A DNA stretch of 64,000 bases, taken from the NCBI GenBank assembly GCA_016237705.1, contig CP066204.1, positions 434,001-498,000 on the forward strand. Reading direction: 5' to 3'. The stretch is from Aerococcaceae bacterium zg-252. GTDB lineage: Bacteria > Bacillota > Bacilli > Lactobacillales > Aerococcaceae. Shown here one piece after another: positions 5,758 through 61,245 of the stretch; within the stretch, counting starts at the first letter, position 1; each line of letters starts with the position of its first letter. A program made the translations under genes and the position numbers. Under the pieces are notes generated by a model, which worked only from the letters and a program-made list of their open reading frames with translations, did not search any database and was not told the DNA's origin.

Positions 5758-5803
5758 GTAGAATGTTTGTGTAAATAAAGAAAAGCAAATAAAAAATGAT
5801 ATA

Positions 5804-5900
5804 CATAGTGTGAGCGAGGGTTTCGGGTTTGAATCACTGGAGAAAAACTTTCCAAGTATTTTGTGAAGTGAATGTCAAGCCAACCTAAACAAACTAGAAA
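5804..5900 (+). repeat. R-element copy 2, between pdhB and pdhC
   Basis: This copy begins CATAGTGTGAGCGAGG and carries GAATCACTGGAG and GTGAAGTG. GGTTTGA (5826-5832) pairs with TCAAGCC (5875-5881) with one G-U pair, where other copies have GGCTTGA. It ends ACTAGAAA, directly before the AAGGAG of pdhC. The inner GTGCG-type hairpin is missing. Confidence 0.85.
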
Positions 5901-5914
5901 AGGAGATATAAATC

Positions 5915-8945: not shown

Positions 8946-8950
8946 TAATA

Positions 8951-9053
8951 TAGTGTGACAATGAGCGTTTTGAAATGAATCACTGGAGCAGAGAACGCAG
9001 AAGTGCGTAAGCACTTCAAGAGCTATGCGAAGTGGACGTCACTTTAGCTCATG
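8951..9053 (+). repeat. R-element copy 3, after pdhD
   Basis: This copy starts TAGTGTGACA and contains GAAATGAATCACTGGAG and GAAGTGGACGTCA. The outer helix pairs ATGAGC (8961-8966) with GCTCAT (9047-9052). The next, GAAATGA with TCACTTT, has one mismatch and one G-U. The apical hairpin pairs AAGTGC with GCACTT. The usual GAACCAGAATA end is missing. It lies between the pdhD stop and the operon terminator. Confidence 0.85.
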
Positions 9054-9063
9054 AAATCAAAAT

Positions 9064-9098
9064 CAAAGTTGATAGGGGAAACTCTGTCAACTTTTTTT
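9064..9098 (+). terminator. Terminator of the pdh operon
   Basis: AAAGTTGATAGGG pairs with CTCTGTCAACTTT around GAAA, with G-U pairs, followed by a T-run. It directly follows R-element copy 3. Confidence 0.85.
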
Positions 9099-12827: not shown

Positions 12828-12861
12828 TTAATGAATATAGAGAACAAAGAATTGAATAGAT

Positions 12862-12943
12862 ATGGTGAGAGCAAGGTTGCTCTGACTTGAATCACTGGAG
12901 AAAACTGACAACGTGCGTGAAACGCACAAAGAACGTTTTTGAT
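12862..12943 (+). repeat. R-element copy 4 (3' end lost), before glyA
   Basis: GACTTGAATCACTGGAGAAAAC and the apical hairpin GTGCGT/ACGCAC are present. The copy stops after GTTTTTGA, so the right arm TCAAGTC and the GAACCAGAATA end are lost. The glyA ribosome binding site follows within 20 bases. Confidence 0.75.
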
Positions 12944-12966
12944 AAAATAAGTGGAGGTTTTAGAAG

Positions 12967-14184
12967 ATGATAAAAGATACAGCGATTTTTAATTTAATTG
13001 AAAAAGAAACACAACGTCAGCAACAGGGGATTGAGTTAATTGCGTCAGAAAATTTTGTATCGCCACAAGTGTTACAGGCACAAGGAAGTATTTTAACGAA
13101 TAAATATGCTGAGGGCTATCCAAATCGCCGTTATTATGGTGGGTGCGAGTGGATTGATGAAATTGAGCAACTGGCAATTGACCGAGCTAAAGAATTATTT
13201 GGTGCTGAATTTGCAAATGTGCAGCCACACTCTGGTTCATCAGCGAATATGGCAGTGTATCGTGCCTTTTTGACGCCAGGGGATAGAGTTTTAGGAATGG
13301 ATTTATCGCAAGGAGGACATTTAACGCATGGTTCGCCAGTTAATTTTAGTGGACAATCGTATGAAATGTATAGCTATGGTGTAGATGAGCAAGGATATAT
13401 TGATTATGACGAAGTAGAGCGGATTGCAGAAGAGTGCCAGCCGAAAATGATGATTGCGGGAGCGAGTGCGTATTCACGAATCATTGATTTCAAACGCATG
13501 AGTGAAATTGCAGCAAAAGTGGGAGCAGTATTTTTTGTAGATATGGCACATATCGCAGGATTAGTTGCTACTGGTTTGCACCCTAATCCAGTTCCTTATG
13601 CAGATGTTGTGACAACGACGACACATAAGACATTACGTGGTCCACGTGGTGGGTTGATTTTAGCTAAAAAAGAACATGCGAAAAAAATTAATAGTGCTGT
13701 CTTTCCTGGTATTCAAGGCGGCCCATTAGAACACGTGATTGCAGCTAAAGCAGTTGCTTTTGGTGAGGCATTAGAACCGGAATTTAAAGAGTATGCAGCA
13801 CAAATCATTAAAAATACGCAAGCAATGGCGAGTGTTTTTGAAGCAAGTGAATTGCATGTTGTTTCAGGTGGAACGGATAATCATCTTTTCTTATTAGATG
13901 TTACACCATTAGGTATTACAGGTAAATGGGCACAAGAACGCTTAGACAAGGTAGGAATTACGGTCAATAAAAATTCAATTCCTAACGATACACAATCATT
14001 TGTGCAAACAAGTGGTATTCGAATTGGTGCAGCTGCGATTACGACTCGTGGAGCTAAGGAAGAAGATGCGATTCAAATTGCTGAATTTATTTTAGCAGCC
14101 CTTAAGGCACCGGAAGAAGAATTAACGGAATTGCATGAAAAAGTAATGGCTTTTGTGCAAGAATGGCCGATGTTTGCTTGGTAG
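12967..14184 (+). CDS. glyA: Serine hydroxymethyltransferase
   Basis: A 405-residue PLP enzyme that interconverts serine and glycine with tetrahydrofolate and supplies one-carbon units. It shows [18 protein letters not shown], the substrate-binding HSGSSAN, and the PLP lysine in [14 protein letters not shown] (Lys221). Its length is normal. GTGGAGG lies about 9 bases before the ATG. In many Firmicutes upp comes next; here the two are separated by an insertion of about 5.7 kb. Confidence 0.98.
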
Positions 14185-14371: not shown

Positions 14372-14827
14372 ATGGCACATAGTTTATCGCACACAAAGTG
14401 GATGTGTAAATACCACATTGTGTTTACCCCAAAGTATAGACGAAAAATCATCTATAATCAATGTCGCAGTAGTTTAGGAGAAATATTTCGACGATTATGT
14501 AGTTATAAAGGAGTCGAAATTATAGAAGGACATCTGATGCCGGACCATGTACATATGTTGGTCAGTATTCCACCAAGAATAAGCGTATCGAGTTTTATGG
14601 GATATTTAAAAGGTAAGAGTGCGTTAATGATGTTTGATAAACACGCAAATTTGAAATATAAATTTGGGAATCGACATTTTTGGGCAGAAGGATATTATGT
14701 GAGTACGGTGGGATTAAACGAAGCCACGATAAAGAAATATATTCAAGAGCAAGAGAAACATGATATAGCCTTGGATAAATTGAGTGTGAAGGAATATGAA
14801 AATCCCTTTAGGGATAGTGGTAAGTAA
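14372..14827 (+). CDS. tnpA: IS200-family transposase TnpA
   Basis: A 151-residue HUH single-strand transposase. It shows the two metal-binding histidines in MPDHVHML (His59 and His61) and the single catalytic tyrosine in IKKYIQEQE (Tyr123). Length and motif order are those of IS200 TnpA, with no TnpB partner. The ATG at 14372 has AAAGGAG 8-10 bases upstream. Peel-and-paste transposition of single-stranded DNA is the family mechanism. Confidence 0.95.
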   Translation: MAHSLSHTKWMCKYHIVFTPKYRRKIIYNQCRSSLGEIFRRLCSYKGVEIIEGHLMPDHVHMLVSIPPRISVSSFMGYLKGKSALMMFDKHANLKYKFGNRHFWAEGYYVSTVGLNEATIKKYIQEQEKHDIALDKLSVKEYENPFRDSGK

Positions 14828-20595: not shown

Positions 20596-20600
20596 TATAA

Positions 20601-20715
20601 TAGTGCGACAACATGCGCTTTGAAATGAATCACTGGAGAAAGCCGCCGGAATGCGTGTAACGCATATAGGTGGCTTTTGAAGTGGATGTCATTTCAGCAT
20701 GTTGGAGCCGGAATA
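20601..20715 (+). repeat. R-element copy 5 (best-folded copy), after upp
   Basis: Five nested helices can be traced. CAACATGC (20609-20616) pairs with GCATGTTG (20697-20704), and GAAATGA (20622-20628) with TCATTTC (20689-20695). CACT (20631-20634) pairs with AGTG (20681-20684). AAAGCCGCC (20639-20647) pairs with GGTGGCTTT (20669-20677, one G-U), and ATGCGT (20651-20656) with ACGCAT (20660-20665) around GTA. It ends GCCGGAATA. A second partial start (GGTGTGAGCGAGG, about 20720-20732) follows. Confidence 0.92.
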
Positions 20716-31485: not shown

Positions 31486-32778
31486 ATGAAAAAATCATTG
31501 TTCAATAAAATTGGTAAGGCTGTGTTAACATTGAGTGCACTTGGAACCGTTATTGCACCGGTAACAGCACATGCAGCATCAAGTGATGCAAATTCATTTA
31601 CGCTTTATTCAAATAAAAGCGAAACACAAAAAGCATTGACTGAATATGCTGCTGCATGGGGTAAAGAAAATGGTGTCAATGTTAATATTAAAGTATGTTC
31701 TGGTTCTTGTACTTTAGCAGATCAATTAAAAGCAGACTTTACAGCTGGTGACGGCCCAGACGTATTCGTTATCGAAGGTCAAGCTGGTTATGATTTATGG
31801 AAAGATGTTTTACAACCAATTTCTGGTAAATGGGTTGATCAAACAGACTTTGAATTTAAGCAAGGTGATCAAGTGTTTGGTTTCCCTGTATCAGTTGAAG
31901 GTTATGGTTTAGCGTACAATAAAGAATTATTAGAAAAAGCAGGTATTGACCCAGCAAGTTTAAATTCATTTGAAGCAGTGAAAGCAGCGTTTGAAGATTT
32001 AGAAAATCGTAAAGAAGAGTTAGGCTTATCAACAGTTGTAGCGAATGCAACAAAAGAGGGCGAAACTTGGATTATGGGTATCCATGACTTCAATGCATAC
32101 TTAGGTGCTGGTTTAGAAAATGGTGACCGTTCAGTAGTTGAAAAATTTGTTAAAGGTGAAGTAGACGAAGAACGTTTAGCAAAATATGCTGATTGGGTAG
32201 AATTATTATTCCAACATACAGATAAAACAATGTTAACAGTTGGTACTCAAGAAGATATGGATATTGCTTTTGCACAAGGTAAAGCAGCGTTCTTACACCA
32301 AGGTTCTTGGAAAGACCCTAACTTATCAGAATTAGAAGCTAAATTTGAAATGGGATTCATTCCTTATCAAACATTAGGAGCTGATAAAAATGGTGAAGGA
32401 TTATTCATCGGAGCTCCGTCTTACTATGTTGTTAACAAAGATACAGCAGCATTAGAAAATATTACTAAATTCTTTGATGATATGGTAGCAACAGAAGCTG
32501 GTCAAGACTACATGGTTAACAAAGCGAACATGATTTCAGCTTATTCTTCAACTGAAGCAAAACCAAGTACACCATTATCAAGTGCTATTTCACAATGGGT
32601 AGCAGACGGTAAACCAGTTTATTCATTTGATAATCCATACTTCATGCCAGACGGATTTGGTATGTCTAACTTAGGACCTATCTATGGACAATTTGCTCAA
32701 GGAAATATTGATAAAGCACAATTTATGGAATTAATTAAAGCAGAAGTAGCAAAAGTTCCTGAATTATTGGCTCAATAA
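31486..32778 (+). CDS. CUT1-family sugar ABC transporter, extracellular binding protein (no lipobox)
   Basis: A 430-residue periplasmic-type binding protein of the MalE/CUT1 class, followed by two MalFG-type permeases. The N-terminus is a type I signal peptide (MKKSLFNKIGKAV, hydrophobic core to about residue 25, cleavage after AHA at 28-30). There is no lipobox cysteine, which Gram-positive binding proteins usually have. Instead the mature protein carries CSGSC (Cys71, Cys75), which might form a disulphide. The ATG at 31486 follows AAAGGAGG; a GTG three bases earlier is less likely. Likely substrate an oligosaccharide, not identified. It is separated from the permease genes by three R-elements. 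Confidence 0.88.
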   Translation: MKKSLFNKIGKAVLTLSALGTVIAPVTAHAASSDANSFTLYSNKSETQKALTEYAAAWGKENGVNVNIKVCSGSCTLADQLKADFTAGDGPDVFVIEGQAGYDLWKDVLQPISGKWVDQTDFEFKQGDQVFGFPVSVEGYGLAYNKELLEKAGIDPASLNSFEAVKAAFEDLENRKEELGLSTVVANATKEGETWIMGIHDFNAYLGAGLENGDRSVVEKFVKGEVDEERLAKYADWVELLFQHTDKTMLTVGTQEDMDIAFAQGKAAFLHQGSWKDPNLSELEAKFEMGFIPYQTLGADKNGEGLFIGAPSYYVVNKDTAALENITKFFDDMVATEAGQDYMVNKANMISAYSSTEAKPSTPLSSAISQWVADGKPVYSFDNPYFMPDGFGMSNLGPIYGQFAQGNIDKAQFMELIKAEVAKVPELLAQ

Positions 32779-32890
32779 GCGATAAATAATTGTATGTATA
32801 GGGTAGGGGTGGTGTAACTACCGTCCCTCCTATTTTTATAGATTACCGATGGGATTTCGGAATGAGAAATCCCATTTATTTTTGAAAAAA

Positions 32891-33009
32891 CATAGTGTGA
32901 GTGAGGGCGTTCAGCTTCGAACCACTGGAGGAAAATACTGTCGTGTGTGCAACACACAGAAGGATTTTCTGAAGTGGACGTCGAAGCTGCCTGAACGAAC
33001 CAGAAAAAA
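32891..33009 (+). repeat. R-element copy 6a (first of three in tandem)
   Basis: AGCTTCGA (32913-32920) pairs with TCGAAGCT (32981-32988), GAAAAT with ATTTTC, and GTGTGT with ACACAC around GCA. The flanking GTTC and GAAC add an outer pairing. All these arms differ from the neighbouring copies but remain complementary. Confidence 0.92.
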
Positions 33010-33128
33010 CATAGTGTGAGTGAGGCTGTTTTGGCTTGAATCACTGGAGAAAACAGACGGCGTGCGTATAGCGCACAGAGGAGGTTTTTGAAGTGGACGT
33101 CAAGCCAAGCTGAACGAACCAGAAAAAA
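33010..33128 (+). repeat. R-element copy 6b (second of three in tandem)
   Basis: TTGGCTTGA (33031-33039) pairs with TCAAGCCAA (33100-33108), AAAAC with GTTTT, and GTGCG with CGCAC. It is almost identical to the third copy over the whole 119-base unit, pointing to a recent tandem duplication. Confidence 0.92.
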
Positions 33129-33245
33129 CATAGTGTGAGTGAGGCTGTTATGGCTTGAACCACTGGAGAAAACAGACGGCGTGCGCATAGCGCACAGAGG
33201 AGGTTTTTTGAAGTGGACGTCAAGCCAAGCCGAACGAACCAGAAA
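33129..33245 (+). repeat. R-element copy 6c (third of three in tandem)
   Basis: The arms GGCTTGA and TCAAGCC pair, as do GTGCGC and GCGCAC. It ends GAACGAACCAGAAAAG, and the AGAGGTG ribosome binding site of the permease gene starts right after it. Confidence 0.92.
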
Positions 33246-33261
33246 AGAAGAGGTGAAAAAA

Positions 33262-34179
33262 ATGTCACAGCAATCAAGACGTGGAAAGCGTGAACGACGT
33301 AATTTTGTGATTTTAGTATCTCCGGCATTATTTATATTCTCTCTTGTTATTATTGTTCCATTTTTCTTGGGATTATACTATTCCTTTACAAATTGGGGCG
33401 GTATTATCAAACCGGTTACAAAAATGGTGGGATTCGAGAATTATATTCAAGCATTTAAAGATACACGTTTCCAATATTCTTTATTAGTCACTGCTATTTT
33501 TGCGATTATTAACGTACTAGTAGTAAATGCTATTGCATTCGGCTTGGCATTGCTAGTATCAAGCGAATTGAAATTCAAAAATGCTTATCGTGCAGGGTTC
33601 TTTGTGCCTAACTTAATCGGTGGATTGGTACTAGGATATATTTGGCAGTTCGTTTTTAACAATGTTTTTCCAAATTTAGGAAAAGTAATTGGTAGCGAAT
33701 TTTTAGTGAATAATCTATTTTTAGGAAATCCTCGTTTAGCGGTAATGGCATTAGTTATTACGAATACTTGGCAATACGCAGGTTATATTATGATGATTTA
33801 TTTTGCAGCTTTGCAAAATGTACCAAAATCATTAACAGAAGCAGCATCATTGGATGGGGCAAATTGGTGGTTTAGACTTCGTCATATTACAATTCCAATG
33901 ATTATGCCTGCATTTACGGTGTCATTATTCTTAACGATTAATAACTCATTTAAAATGTTCGATGTTAACTTCTCTTTAACAGGTGGTGGACCATCTATGT
34001 TATGGGCAAACCAAGCGATTAAGAGTACCGAGTTTATTACGATGAATATTTATAATACAGCATCGCTTGAAAACCAAATGGCACGTGGACAAGCTAGAGC
34101 GATTATTTTGTTCGTTATTTTAGTGGTAATTAGTATCACGCAAACAACAATTACGAAGAGAAAAGAGGTTGAGATGTAA
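33262..34179 (+). CDS. CUT1 sugar ABC transporter permease 1 (MalF-like)
   Basis: A 305-residue membrane protein with six predicted transmembrane segments and the EAA loop (LTEAASLDGANWWFRLRHITIPMIMP) that contacts the ATPase. The ATG at 33262 is chosen because AGAGGTG lies 8 bases upstream; the longer frame from 33139 would run through the R-element. It forms the channel with the next permease. The operon encodes no ATPase, so a shared MsmK-type ATPase elsewhere is probably used. Confidence 0.93.
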   Translation: MSQQSRRGKRERRNFVILVSPALFIFSLVIIVPFFLGLYYSFTNWGGIIKPVTKMVGFENYIQAFKDTRFQYSLLVTAIFAIINVLVVNAIAFGLALLVSSELKFKNAYRAGFFVPNLIGGLVLGYIWQFVFNNVFPNLGKVIGSEFLVNNLFLGNPRLAVMALVITNTWQYAGYIMMIYFAALQNVPKSLTEAASLDGANWWFRLRHITIPMIMPAFTVSLFLTINNSFKMFDVNFSLTGGGPSMLWANQAIKSTEFITMNIYNTASLENQMARGQARAIILFVILVVISITQTTITKRKEVEM

Positions 34180-35051
34180 TGAGTAAAAAAACAGCAGGCC
34201 GTTGGGCATTAGAGATTTTTGCAGCCTTAACGTTTATTCTTTTCATTAGTCCAATTATCTTAATTATCATTAATGCGGCGAAAACTTCGCCACAAATTTT
34301 ATCGAATCCATTGAATTTACCACAAGAATGGGGCAATCTTTGGAGTAATATTGTTGAAATTTGGAATAATCCAGTAGTTAAGTACCAAGAAAGTTTTATA
34401 TCATCTGTGATTATTACAGTGTTATCATTAACTTTAATTACTTTGATTTCATCATTAGCTGCATGGGGTTTGGTGCGTTATCAGTCAAAATGGTCAAATG
34501 TAATCTTTTTAATTTTTGTTGCGTCAATGGTAATTCCATTCCAAGTTGTCATGTATCCACTTATTTCATGGTTTAAAACAGTGAGTGATCATGTTACGAT
34601 TCCATTTATGGGCTTTAGCTTATTACGTTCATATCAAGGAATTATTTTAGCCTATATTGGCTTCGGTATGGGGCTTTCTATCTTTATGTTCCATGGTTTT
34701 ATTAAAGGTGTGCCATTGGAAATTGAAGAGGCCGCAGAAATTGATGGCTGTAATAAATTTCAAACATTTTTCTATGTCGTTTTACCGATTTTAAAACCAA
34801 TTTACATTACAATTATCATTTTAAATGGTATTTGGATTTGGAATGACTTCTTATTACCATTACTATTATTAGGTAAAGGAAATGCTATTCAAACATTACC
34901 AATCGCCGTATCTAACTTTGCAGGTGCTTTTACAAAAGAATGGGACATGATTTTAAGTTCTGCATTATTTGTTATGTTGCCAATTATTATCATCTTCTTA
35001 ATTGCACAAAAACAAATTTTAAAAGGTATGGTAGACGGTGCAATCAAATAA
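34179..35051 (+). CDS. CUT1 sugar ABC transporter permease 2 (MalG-like)
   Basis: A 290-residue membrane protein with six predicted segments and the EAA motif LEIEEAAEIDGCNKFQTFFYVVLPILKP. Its ATG overlaps the stop of permease 1 by one base, so translation is coupled. It completes the transmembrane heterodimer for the binding protein encoded upstream. Confidence 0.94.
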   Translation: MSKKTAGRWALEIFAALTFILFISPIILIIINAAKTSPQILSNPLNLPQEWGNLWSNIVEIWNNPVVKYQESFISSVIITVLSLTLITLISSLAAWGLVRYQSKWSNVIFLIFVASMVIPFQVVMYPLISWFKTVSDHVTIPFMGFSLLRSYQGIILAYIGFGMGLSIFMFHGFIKGVPLEIEEAAEIDGCNKFQTFFYVVLPILKPIYITIIILNGIWIWNDFLLPLLLLGKGNAIQTLPIAVSNFAGAFTKEWDMILSSALFVMLPIIIIFLIAQKQILKGMVDGAIK

Positions 35052-52337: not shown

Positions 52338-52593
52338 TAAAATCCACCTTTCAACTTCGTTTTTCAATACATGCTATTGTATCAAAAATATTCTAGGAAA
52401 AAAGGACTTTTGATAAAGTTTTTGCGAAAGGAAAAAAGATTCGGAATTTTGATTGAAATATGGTATTATAATGCTGAACCCCCTGAATGAGTTAGAGGAT
52501 ATTGGAGTGTTGTTTAGCTCAATTCATTTATAAATGTGATTGCAACGTATATTATTTTCTGTTAAACTAAGGAAAATCTTATTTTTAATAAAA

Positions 52594-52690
52594 TAGAGTG
52601 TGACAATGAGTGTTCTGAAATGAACCACTGGAGAAACGCACATAGGCGGCTTTTGAAGTGGAGATATTTCAACGAGTTGGAACCAGAATA
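52594..52690 (+). repeat. R-element copy 7 (shortened), in the valS leader region
   Basis: It begins TAGAGTGTGACA and ends GTTGGAACCAGAATA, with GAAATGAACCACTGGAGAAA and TTTTGAAGTGGA. GAAAT (52617-52621) still pairs with ATTTC (52666-52670). The inner arms are partly deleted. The T-box starts within a few bases of its end. A possible -10 (TATAAT, 52467-52472) lies upstream, so the element may be transcribed in the valS leader. Confidence 0.85.
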
Positions 52691-52691
52691 T

Positions 52692-52936
52692 TGATGACGA
52701 TGAAGAGAAGAGTAATTTGCGAATTTGTCAGAGAGAAAACAGTTGGTGAAAGTTTTCAAAGCAAATGAAGGTAGCTTGGAGTTTGGCGTGCCAACGGTTA
52801 TTTAACTTAGTAGTGCGACACGGAGATCCACTTCGATAACAAGGCAATGAGTGAAGTGTTTAAACACTTCAAAATTTAGGTGGTACCACGTTAATTGACG
52901 TCCTATGTAGTAACATACATGGGGCGTTTTATTTTG
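52692..52936 (+). ncRNA. T-box riboswitch for valS
   Basis: The core AGGTGGTACCACG (52878-52890) is followed by a terminator (CGTCCTATGTA with TACATGGGGCG, then TTTTATTTT). The 5' part has the GAAGAGAAGAGTAATTT start of a Stem I. A GTA (Val) triplet in GAAGGTAGC (about 52770) is a candidate specifier. It responds to uncharged tRNA-Val. Confidence 0.9.
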
Positions 52937-61149: not shown

Positions 61150-61151
61150 AA

Positions 61152-61212
61152 CATAGTGTGAGCGAGGGTGTTTTGTGAAGTGGACGTCAAGCCAACACGA
61201 GCGAACCAGAAT
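61152..61212 (+). repeat. R-element copy 8 (internal deletion), between trhP1 and trhP2
   Basis: It begins CATAGTGTGAGCGAGGGTG and ends GCGAACCAGAATA. The left half from helix 2 to the apical hairpin is missing, so GAAGTGGACGTCAAGCC has no partner. GTGTT and AACAC can still pair. A further partial start (ACATAGAGTGA) follows. Confidence 0.82.
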
Positions 61213-61245
61213 AAAACATAGAGTGAACAAACCAAGGAGTAGAAC

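What the first reader, a model, noticed from the sequence alone, without database searches (positions are those of the whole stretch)
32891..33245. Three tandem R-elements between the sugar-binding protein gene and the permease genes
The first copy has diverged arms while the second and third are almost identical, so the array grew by recent duplication. The place is the same as that of the REP elements of E. coli malE-malF, which protect the upstream mRNA and raise binding-protein level over permease. A similar role is a concrete hypothesis.
Basis: partly seen in the sequence, partly recalled or inferred. Interest (0 to 1): 0.8.

Follow-up and report, generated by a model that had tools for sequence, protein, structure and literature searches.

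The report
Hairpin repeats docked before Shine-Dalgarno sites
The three repeats between the sugar-transport genes are real and belong to a large, apparently undescribed family of folded, seemingly mobile repeats that very often sits directly in front of the ribosome-binding site of the next gene; at this place it looks like a recent insertion, not the device that sets the level of the upstream protein.

Summary
The array is real: three 119-120-nt head-to-tail units at 32889-33246 between a MalE-like gene and its permease genes. Units 2 and 3 are 95.8% alike; unit 1 is closer to copies elsewhere (80.7%) than to unit 2 (75.8%). The family has at least 142 copies (104 clusters) in this 2.1-Mb genome (inferred Aerococcaceae), matches in 36 of 295 genomes of its order (own included), and no Rfam match. 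Its hairpin is backed by strong covariation. In 47 of 104 clusters GGAG lies 0-4 nt beyond the 3' end (29 flush), each with an open frame at Shine-Dalgarno spacing; on the left, 1 of 104. A congener repeats this (19 of 47; left 1). No clear target-site duplication was seen. At malE-malF the array is absent from 3 of 3 congeners and 11 of 11 other loci; the closest congener shows an empty site. Two terminator-like hairpins precede the array, and 9 of 9 relatives examined have a stem-loop in that gap without it. The REP-like role is therefore not supported, though not excluded. Best reading: a mobile, BOX-like hairpin repeat held at SD-proximal sites that leaves the SD open. No mobilising enzyme was found and no RNA data exist.

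The parts
31486..32778 (+). MalE-like sugar-binding protein gene (upstream gene)
   Evidence: ORF list; NCBIfam MalE E 1.5e-11, below curated cut-off
32805..32828 (+). terminator-like hairpin I followed by T run, upstream of the array
   Evidence: folds; equivalent hairpin in congener G002
32848..32876 (+). terminator-like hairpin II followed by T run, upstream of the array
   Evidence: equivalent in G002
32889..33007 (+). repeat unit 1 (119 nt hairpin)
   Evidence: model R1, 130.6 bits
33008..33126 (+). repeat unit 2 (119 nt hairpin)
   Evidence: model R1, 132.9 bits
33127..33246 (+). repeat unit 3 (120 nt hairpin), 95.8% identical to unit 2
   Evidence: model R1, 131.7 bits; identity
33247..33255 (+). 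Shine-Dalgarno region (GAAGAGGTG) of the permease gene, flush with the array; also present in the empty site of G002
33262..34179 (+). MalF-like permease gene
34179..35051 (+). MalG-like permease gene
5802..5901 (+). family member ending at GGAG of the next gene; no element at the site in G002
8947..9064 (+). family member; no element at the site in G002
12859..12979 (+). degenerate family member; no element at the site in G002 (flanks diverged)
20597..20715 (+). family member; site also occupied in G002
52592..52690 (+). family member flush with a T-box leader (52691-52908); no element at the site in G002
61150..61213 (+). internally deleted family member

Best explanation
The array is three copies of a small, apparently mobile non-coding repeat whose single strand folds into one long hairpin with a conserved core (CACTGGAG opposite GAAGTGGACG). 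SHOWN by sequence: high copy number, compensatory base changes within and across bacterial families, empty versus filled sites between congeners, no clear target-site duplication, and strong positioning of the 3' end 0-4 nt before a Shine-Dalgarno sequence that, in the empty sites examined, was already there. INFERRED: copies arrive by an unknown transposition-type route and stay where they leave the SD usable. Transcribed units fold on themselves and keep the SD open, insulating it from upstream structure. At malE-malF the array came in after the split from the closest sequenced congener, behind two terminator-like hairpins, and units 2-3 then duplicated. Its likeliest effect is on the permease mRNA: an SD freed from the neighbouring U tract, perhaps a stabilised 5' side of a processed malFG message. 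Setting binding-protein level is the less likely effect.
For: Copies: at least 142 at E<=0.01, in 104 clusters. Structure: 94.6% of cells paired against 82.8% in shuffles, 98 double-change cells against 30.1; in 17 units across genera 28 of 36 pairs have two-sided changes. SD docking: 47 of 104 clusters have GGAG at offset 0-4 on the right, 47 of 47 with a frame of 60 or more codons (or running off the stretch) at SD spacing; left 1 of 104 (offsets). With variant cores 51 of 52. For the 30 docked clusters with an upstream non-coding gap of at least 40 nt, uniform placing expects 1.2. Congener G002: 19 of 47 right, 1 of 47 left. SD rather than any GGAG: the window has 59 intergenic GGAG outside elements, 30 SD and 29 not by a rough rule, 2 of the 29 having a long frame at SD spacing. 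Empty sites: 5 of 6 comparable window places lack the element in G002. SD openness (prediction): 0.59 with element, 0.45 with flanks joined (35 of 51 higher, p 7e-4), 0.49 with shuffled unit (39 of 51, p 5e-5); at malF 0.56 against 0.35.
Against: No mobilising enzyme was identified. IS200-type transposase genes are in this genome (7 hits) but not found in G028, which carries elements. 24 of 104 clusters end neither at a strict SD with start nor at another unit, and 4 lie antisense to both neighbours. In G167 and G015 the same hairpin follows a gene's stop codon within a longer repeat ending in a terminator, so SD docking is not a trait of the whole superfamily. The left flank equals the unit's own 3' tail slightly more often than by chance (5 nt: 6 against 3.6; 6 nt: 3 against 1.0), so a duplication at some sites is not excluded. 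The accessibility gain is modest and only predicted. No expression data.
Confidence: 0.68

Rival explanations
1. REP-like 3' stabiliser: the array blocks 3'-to-5' decay from the permease side and raises malE mRNA over malFG.
For: Right place, strong sense-strand hairpins, three in a row; REP role at E. coli malE-malF (recalled).
Against: Array absent from 3 of 3 congeners and 9 of 9 other loci whose malE-malF order I saw; two terminator-like hairpins lie between malE and the array, so malE ends need not reach it; the family abuts the downstream SD at many other loci.
Confidence: 0.15
2. 5' stabiliser or cleavage site: the hairpins are cut (for example by RNase III) and then protect the 5' side of malFG mRNA from 5' exonuclease.
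For: Long helices flush 5' of an SD; 5' hairpins stabilise mRNAs in Gram-positives (recalled); Neisserial NEMIS repeats are proposed RNase III targets (PMC2229807, passages seen).
Against: No RNA ends or nuclease data; compatible with, not separate from, the mobile-repeat reading.
Confidence: 0.3
3. The elements are not mobile but a vertically kept leader that genes need.
For: Position at SD, structure conserved with compensatory changes.
Against: Presence differs at 5 of 6 compared window places between congeners; 9 of 47 G002 clusters have CACTGGA[A/G], or near it, as left flank, that is, lie inside another copy; 11 of 11 fetched copies in G167 are near-identical at different places.
Confidence: 0.08
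4. Non-autonomous IS200/IS605-type element moved by the resident Y1 transposase into a short target ending in GGAG.
For: No clear TSD, hairpin, fixed short flank, seven Y1 hits in the genome.
Against: Resident IS200 flanks read by eye do not resemble the repeat; G028 has elements but no Y1 hit; about half of intergenic GGAG in the window are not SDs yet 47 of 47 docked ones are.
Confidence: 0.15

Closest known systems
BOX elements of Streptococcus pneumoniae
   Same: about 100-plus copies in a 2-Mb Gram-positive genome, folded if transcribed, likely parasitic with side effects on co-transcribed genes (PMC3049150, passages seen)
   Different: BOX is modular A-B-C with terminal inverted repeats and target-site duplications and almost absent outside pneumococcus, S. 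mitis and a S. suis relative; this unit is one 119-nt hairpin, no clear TSD, 3' end docked on SDs, found in four (unnamed) families of its order
REP/BIME of E. coli (malE-malF, recalled) and RAYT-linked REPs
   Same: palindromic, intergenic, high copy, place between binding-protein and permease genes
   Different: REPs are 20-40 bp, with GTAG or CGTC tags (PMC3733652, listing abstract and passages); this unit is 119 nt with another core, same-strand arrays only, next to the downstream SD
RUP, ERIC, Correia/NEMIS (bacterial MITE-like repeats)
   Same: short folded non-autonomous repeats, RUP 107 bp and 108 copies (PMC2229807, passages seen)
   Different: those have TIR, TA termini and TSD in its table; no clear TSD here
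SPRITE of S. pneumoniae
   Same: terminator-like repeat near 3' ends of genes; the G167 and G015 relatives also end in terminators behind stop codons
   Different: the units in this genome carry no sense-strand T run (array only) and lie before SDs

Membership tests
REP/BIME | 20-40 bp palindrome with GTAG or CGTC tag | tested here: not met
   unit is 119-120 nt with a different conserved core
REP/BIME | alternating orientation of units in arrays | tested here: not met
   0 opposite-strand neighbouring clusters within 300 nt among 104
BOX | boxA-boxB-boxC modules | not tested
   no BOX model was run
MITE (RUP/ERIC type) | target-site duplication | tested here: not met
   left flank against right flank: 4 nt 1 vs 0.6 expected, 5 nt 0 vs 0.1; against the unit's own tail there is a slight excess (5 nt 6 vs 3.6), and malE-malF has GAAAA on both sides, so single sites stay ambiguous
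MITE (RUP/ERIC type) | ends shared with a resident IS | tested here: inconclusive
   unlike the resident IS200 by eye; other IS families not compared; no orphan end pair enclosing a gene noticed
IS200/IS605-derived element | mobilised by a Y1 transposase | tested here: inconclusive
   Y1 hits in 4 of 5 element-bearing genomes searched, none in G028
any Rfam family | match at gathering score | tested here: not met
   no family matches the array; 7 relative loci: nothing credible
intrinsic terminator | hairpin followed by T run on the sense strand | tested here: not met
   no sense-strand site inside the array; the two near it lie before it. Three antisense sites do lie in the units, one per unit

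The most novel reading that the evidence does not exclude
A mobile hairpin whose integration is guided by the translation signal itself: copies enter immediately 5' of functional Shine-Dalgarno sites (through mRNA, the ribosome or an SD-recognising enzyme), not at GGAG as DNA, giving a transposable insulator of ribosome-binding sites spread through this bacterial order.
Probability: 0.2. Interest if true: 0.9.

Novelty: new variant of a known kind. Interest (0 to 1): 0.62.

Why it matters
A repeat family with strong covariation, mostly 0-1-nt docking on Shine-Dalgarno sites and insertion/no-insertion pairs between congeners gives a testable case of a mobile element tuned to, or guided by, bacterial translation initiation. 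It also warns that a REP-like place in an operon does not imply a REP-like job. The family has no match in Rfam, so annotation that relies on Rfam misses it.

Tried and rejected
Rfam at gathering and permissive thresholds: nothing credible. Similar DNA: none for the array in plasmids, none for malE plus array or a single unit in phages; a G167 unit gave one partial Aerococcus plasmid hit. A core pattern gave no viral contig. Replication-driven orientation: 92 of 104 clusters agree with a presumed ori near 0 and terminus near 1.0 Mb (inferred from the strand switch), but 8 of the 12 exceptions follow the downstream gene, so gene direction explains more. General target-site duplication rejected (with the reservation given under evidence against). 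Autonomous parent: left-end and right-end motif lists (the latter list was cut at its end) read by eye gave no orphan pair enclosing a gene. The element bringing its own SD: rejected where the empty site already has it (malE-malF, 5802, and the G002-only insertion opposite window 9842). Tandem duplication as the sole source of arrays: only 12 of 38 neighbouring pairs are closer to each other than to a unit elsewhere. Promoter in the array: no sigma-70-like match inside it. Literature: searches listed no paper that I recognised as describing this family; the library lacks most subscription papers, and the E. coli malE-malF REP work is recalled, not read. Not used: structure prediction (no protein involved).

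Limits of counts. One search scored 150 of 775 candidates, so 142 is a lower bound. One search scored at most 60 and at most 12 candidates a genome; prevalence counts include the own genome and are lower bounds, and drafts may under-count. Genes come from a crude ORF rule, and neighbour genes were not annotated genome-wide. In one search, 3 of 50 clusters were dropped for short right flanks. The 40 G002 stretches were chosen from high-scoring hits, not at random. A3 holds 17 units picked by me. The offset counts sum to 48 because one cluster has two GGAG; one search counts clusters once (47). Summing one search gives 21 for G002; counted once it is 19. In G002 the 5802 site reads AAACATAAGGAG, which could be a remnant rather than a virgin site.

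Full report
OBSERVATION. The region holds three direct repeats of 119-120 nt, at 32889-33007, 33008-33126 and 33127-33246 by covariance model, between a MalE-like gene and MalF/MalG-like genes. Each folds into one long hairpin, z -3.6 to -5.4. Units 2 and 3 share 95.8%; unit 1 shares 75.8% with unit 2 and up to 80.7% with copies elsewhere. So only part of 'grew by recent duplication' stands. All three units end in AGAAAA where most copies end in AGAATA or GGAATA, which suggests some local homogenisation.

A FAMILY. A left-end motif has 80 sites in the genome with up to two mismatches, against 1 for the reversed control. A covariance model from 23 copies finds at least 142 copies, in 104 clusters: 70 single, 30 double, 4 triple. 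The structure is supported: 94.6% of cells paired (shuffles 82.8), 21 of 34 pairs with changes on both sides (shuffles 12.0), 98 double-change cells (shuffles 30.1), and sliding the partner by one base drops pairing to 40-43%. In 17 units from several genera 28 of 36 pairs have two-sided changes, while the CACU/AGUG helix and its flanking internal loops stay nearly fixed. Matches occur in 15 of 60 genomes and in 36 of 295 genomes of the order, in four families, the own genome counted in both. Rfam has no match.

WHERE IT SITS. Reading each cluster 5' to 3', GGAG lies 0-4 nt beyond the right border in 47 of 104 clusters (29 at 0, 11 at 1), and 47 of 47 have a frame of at least 60 codons, or one running off the stretch, at SD spacing; within 4 nt on the left it occurs in 1 of 104. 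With variant SD cores in the first 8 nt it is 52, of which 51 have such a frame. By the rule, 51 end at an SD with start, 29 at another unit or remnant, 24 at neither. For the 30 docked clusters with an upstream gap of at least 40 nt, uniform placement predicts 1.2; for all 51 it predicts 19.2, because many gaps are short. In the window, 59 intergenic GGAG lie outside elements, 30 at SDs and 29 not by a rough gene rule, of which 2 have a long frame at SD spacing. Docking on any GGAG would therefore not give only SDs; a longer DNA target such as AAGGAG is not excluded. The upstream gene's stop lies within 3 nt of the left border in 35 of 104. The downstream gene is on the element's strand in 94 of 104 (crude ORFs). 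In congener G002, 19 of 47 clusters have GGAG at offsets 0-4 on the right, 17 of them at 0-1, and 1 on the left.

MOBILITY. G002 is the congener with the closest match at this locus (87% at malE and malF). Its malE-malF gap reads ...TTTTTGAAAAGAAGAGGTG..., the window's flanks without the array. Of 7 places with elements in the window, 6 can be compared: 5 lack the element in G002 (5802, 8947, 12859, malE-malF, 52592) and one is occupied in both (20597); 61150 was not covered. G002 has copies the window lacks, among them three units before the gene at window 9865 and five on the opposite strand after malG. In G002, 9 of 47 clusters have CACTGGA[A/G], or close to it, as left flank, that is, they lie inside another copy at the conserved core; one such case was seen among the 104 here (952318). 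No clear target-site duplication was found: left flank equals right flank over 4 nt once (0.6 expected); against the unit's own tail there is a slight excess. In G167, 11 of 11 fetched copies are near-identical, within a longer repeat that ends in a terminator. A co-oriented frame of 100 or more codons ends near the element's start in 9 of 11 G167 and 9 of 9 G015 copies, so the hairpin also exists in a 3'-UTR form in other genera.

THE malE-malF CASE. The array is absent from the three congeners: G002 is empty; in G001 and G003 the gap between aligned gene ends is 255 and 248 nt against 507 in the window, with no model match. The model finds no copy in 11 of 11 further loci. The 9 of those read in detail have a long stem-loop between malE and malF, with a T run of four or more at or behind it in at least L062, L063, L066 and L069. 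The window has two terminator-like hairpins there, at 32805-32828 and 32848-32876. A structure able to favour malE is thus older than, and independent of, the array.

WHAT IT MAY DO. Folding predicts that the unit keeps to itself: SD openness averages 0.59 with the last unit, 0.45 with flanks joined (35 of 51 higher, Wilcoxon p 7e-4) and 0.49 with shuffled units (39 of 51, p 5e-5). At malF it is 0.56 with the array and 0.35 with flanks joined (0.32 in G002); in the fold of the G002 gap the terminator's U tract pairs with the SD. So the predicted effect favours permease translation if anything. This is prediction only; no RNA data were available.

KNOWN KINDS. It works most like BOX: a high-copy folded repeat co-transcribed with host genes (PMC3049150, passages seen). 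It lacks a clear TSD as reported for BOX and RUP (PMC3049150, PMC2229807, passages) and the size and tags of REPs (PMC3733652, listing abstract and passages). I therefore file it as a new variant of small interspersed bacterial repeats, not as a member of any named family. The claim that it is undescribed rests and the literature searches listed under Tried and rejected.

Noticed in passing
window 52592-52690 and 52691-52908: A repeat copy ends exactly where a T-box leader begins; in G002 at least two model hits lie between the T-box and the SD of the same gene (L225 6754-7110), reminiscent of the BOX between pneumococcal trp T-boxes (PMC3049150).
   Followed up: partly
window 14372-14827: IS200-type Y1 transposase gene; four equally scoring copies in the genome, seven hits in all, one with an internal stop.
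   Followed up: partly
L224 7008-7608: In G002 a five-unit array lies on the strand opposite to malG and the next gene, with alternating unit types.
   Followed up: no
L223 7785-8767: In G002 a gene stretch and its three-unit array appear twice in tandem, suggesting recombination between arrays.
   Followed up: no
L257-L267 (G167), L268-L276 (G015): The same hairpin core forms the 5' part of a longer repeat ending in an intrinsic terminator, mostly just behind stop codons, near-identical among the fetched copies of G167.
   Followed up: partly
L298, L309, L277, L313 and others (G002): Copies nested inside other copies right after the conserved CACTGGA of the core.
   Followed up: partly
window 32942-32958, 33061-33077, 33180-33196 (- strand): Each unit holds a terminator-like hairpin plus T run on the antisense strand, so the array could stop antisense transcription.
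   Followed up: no
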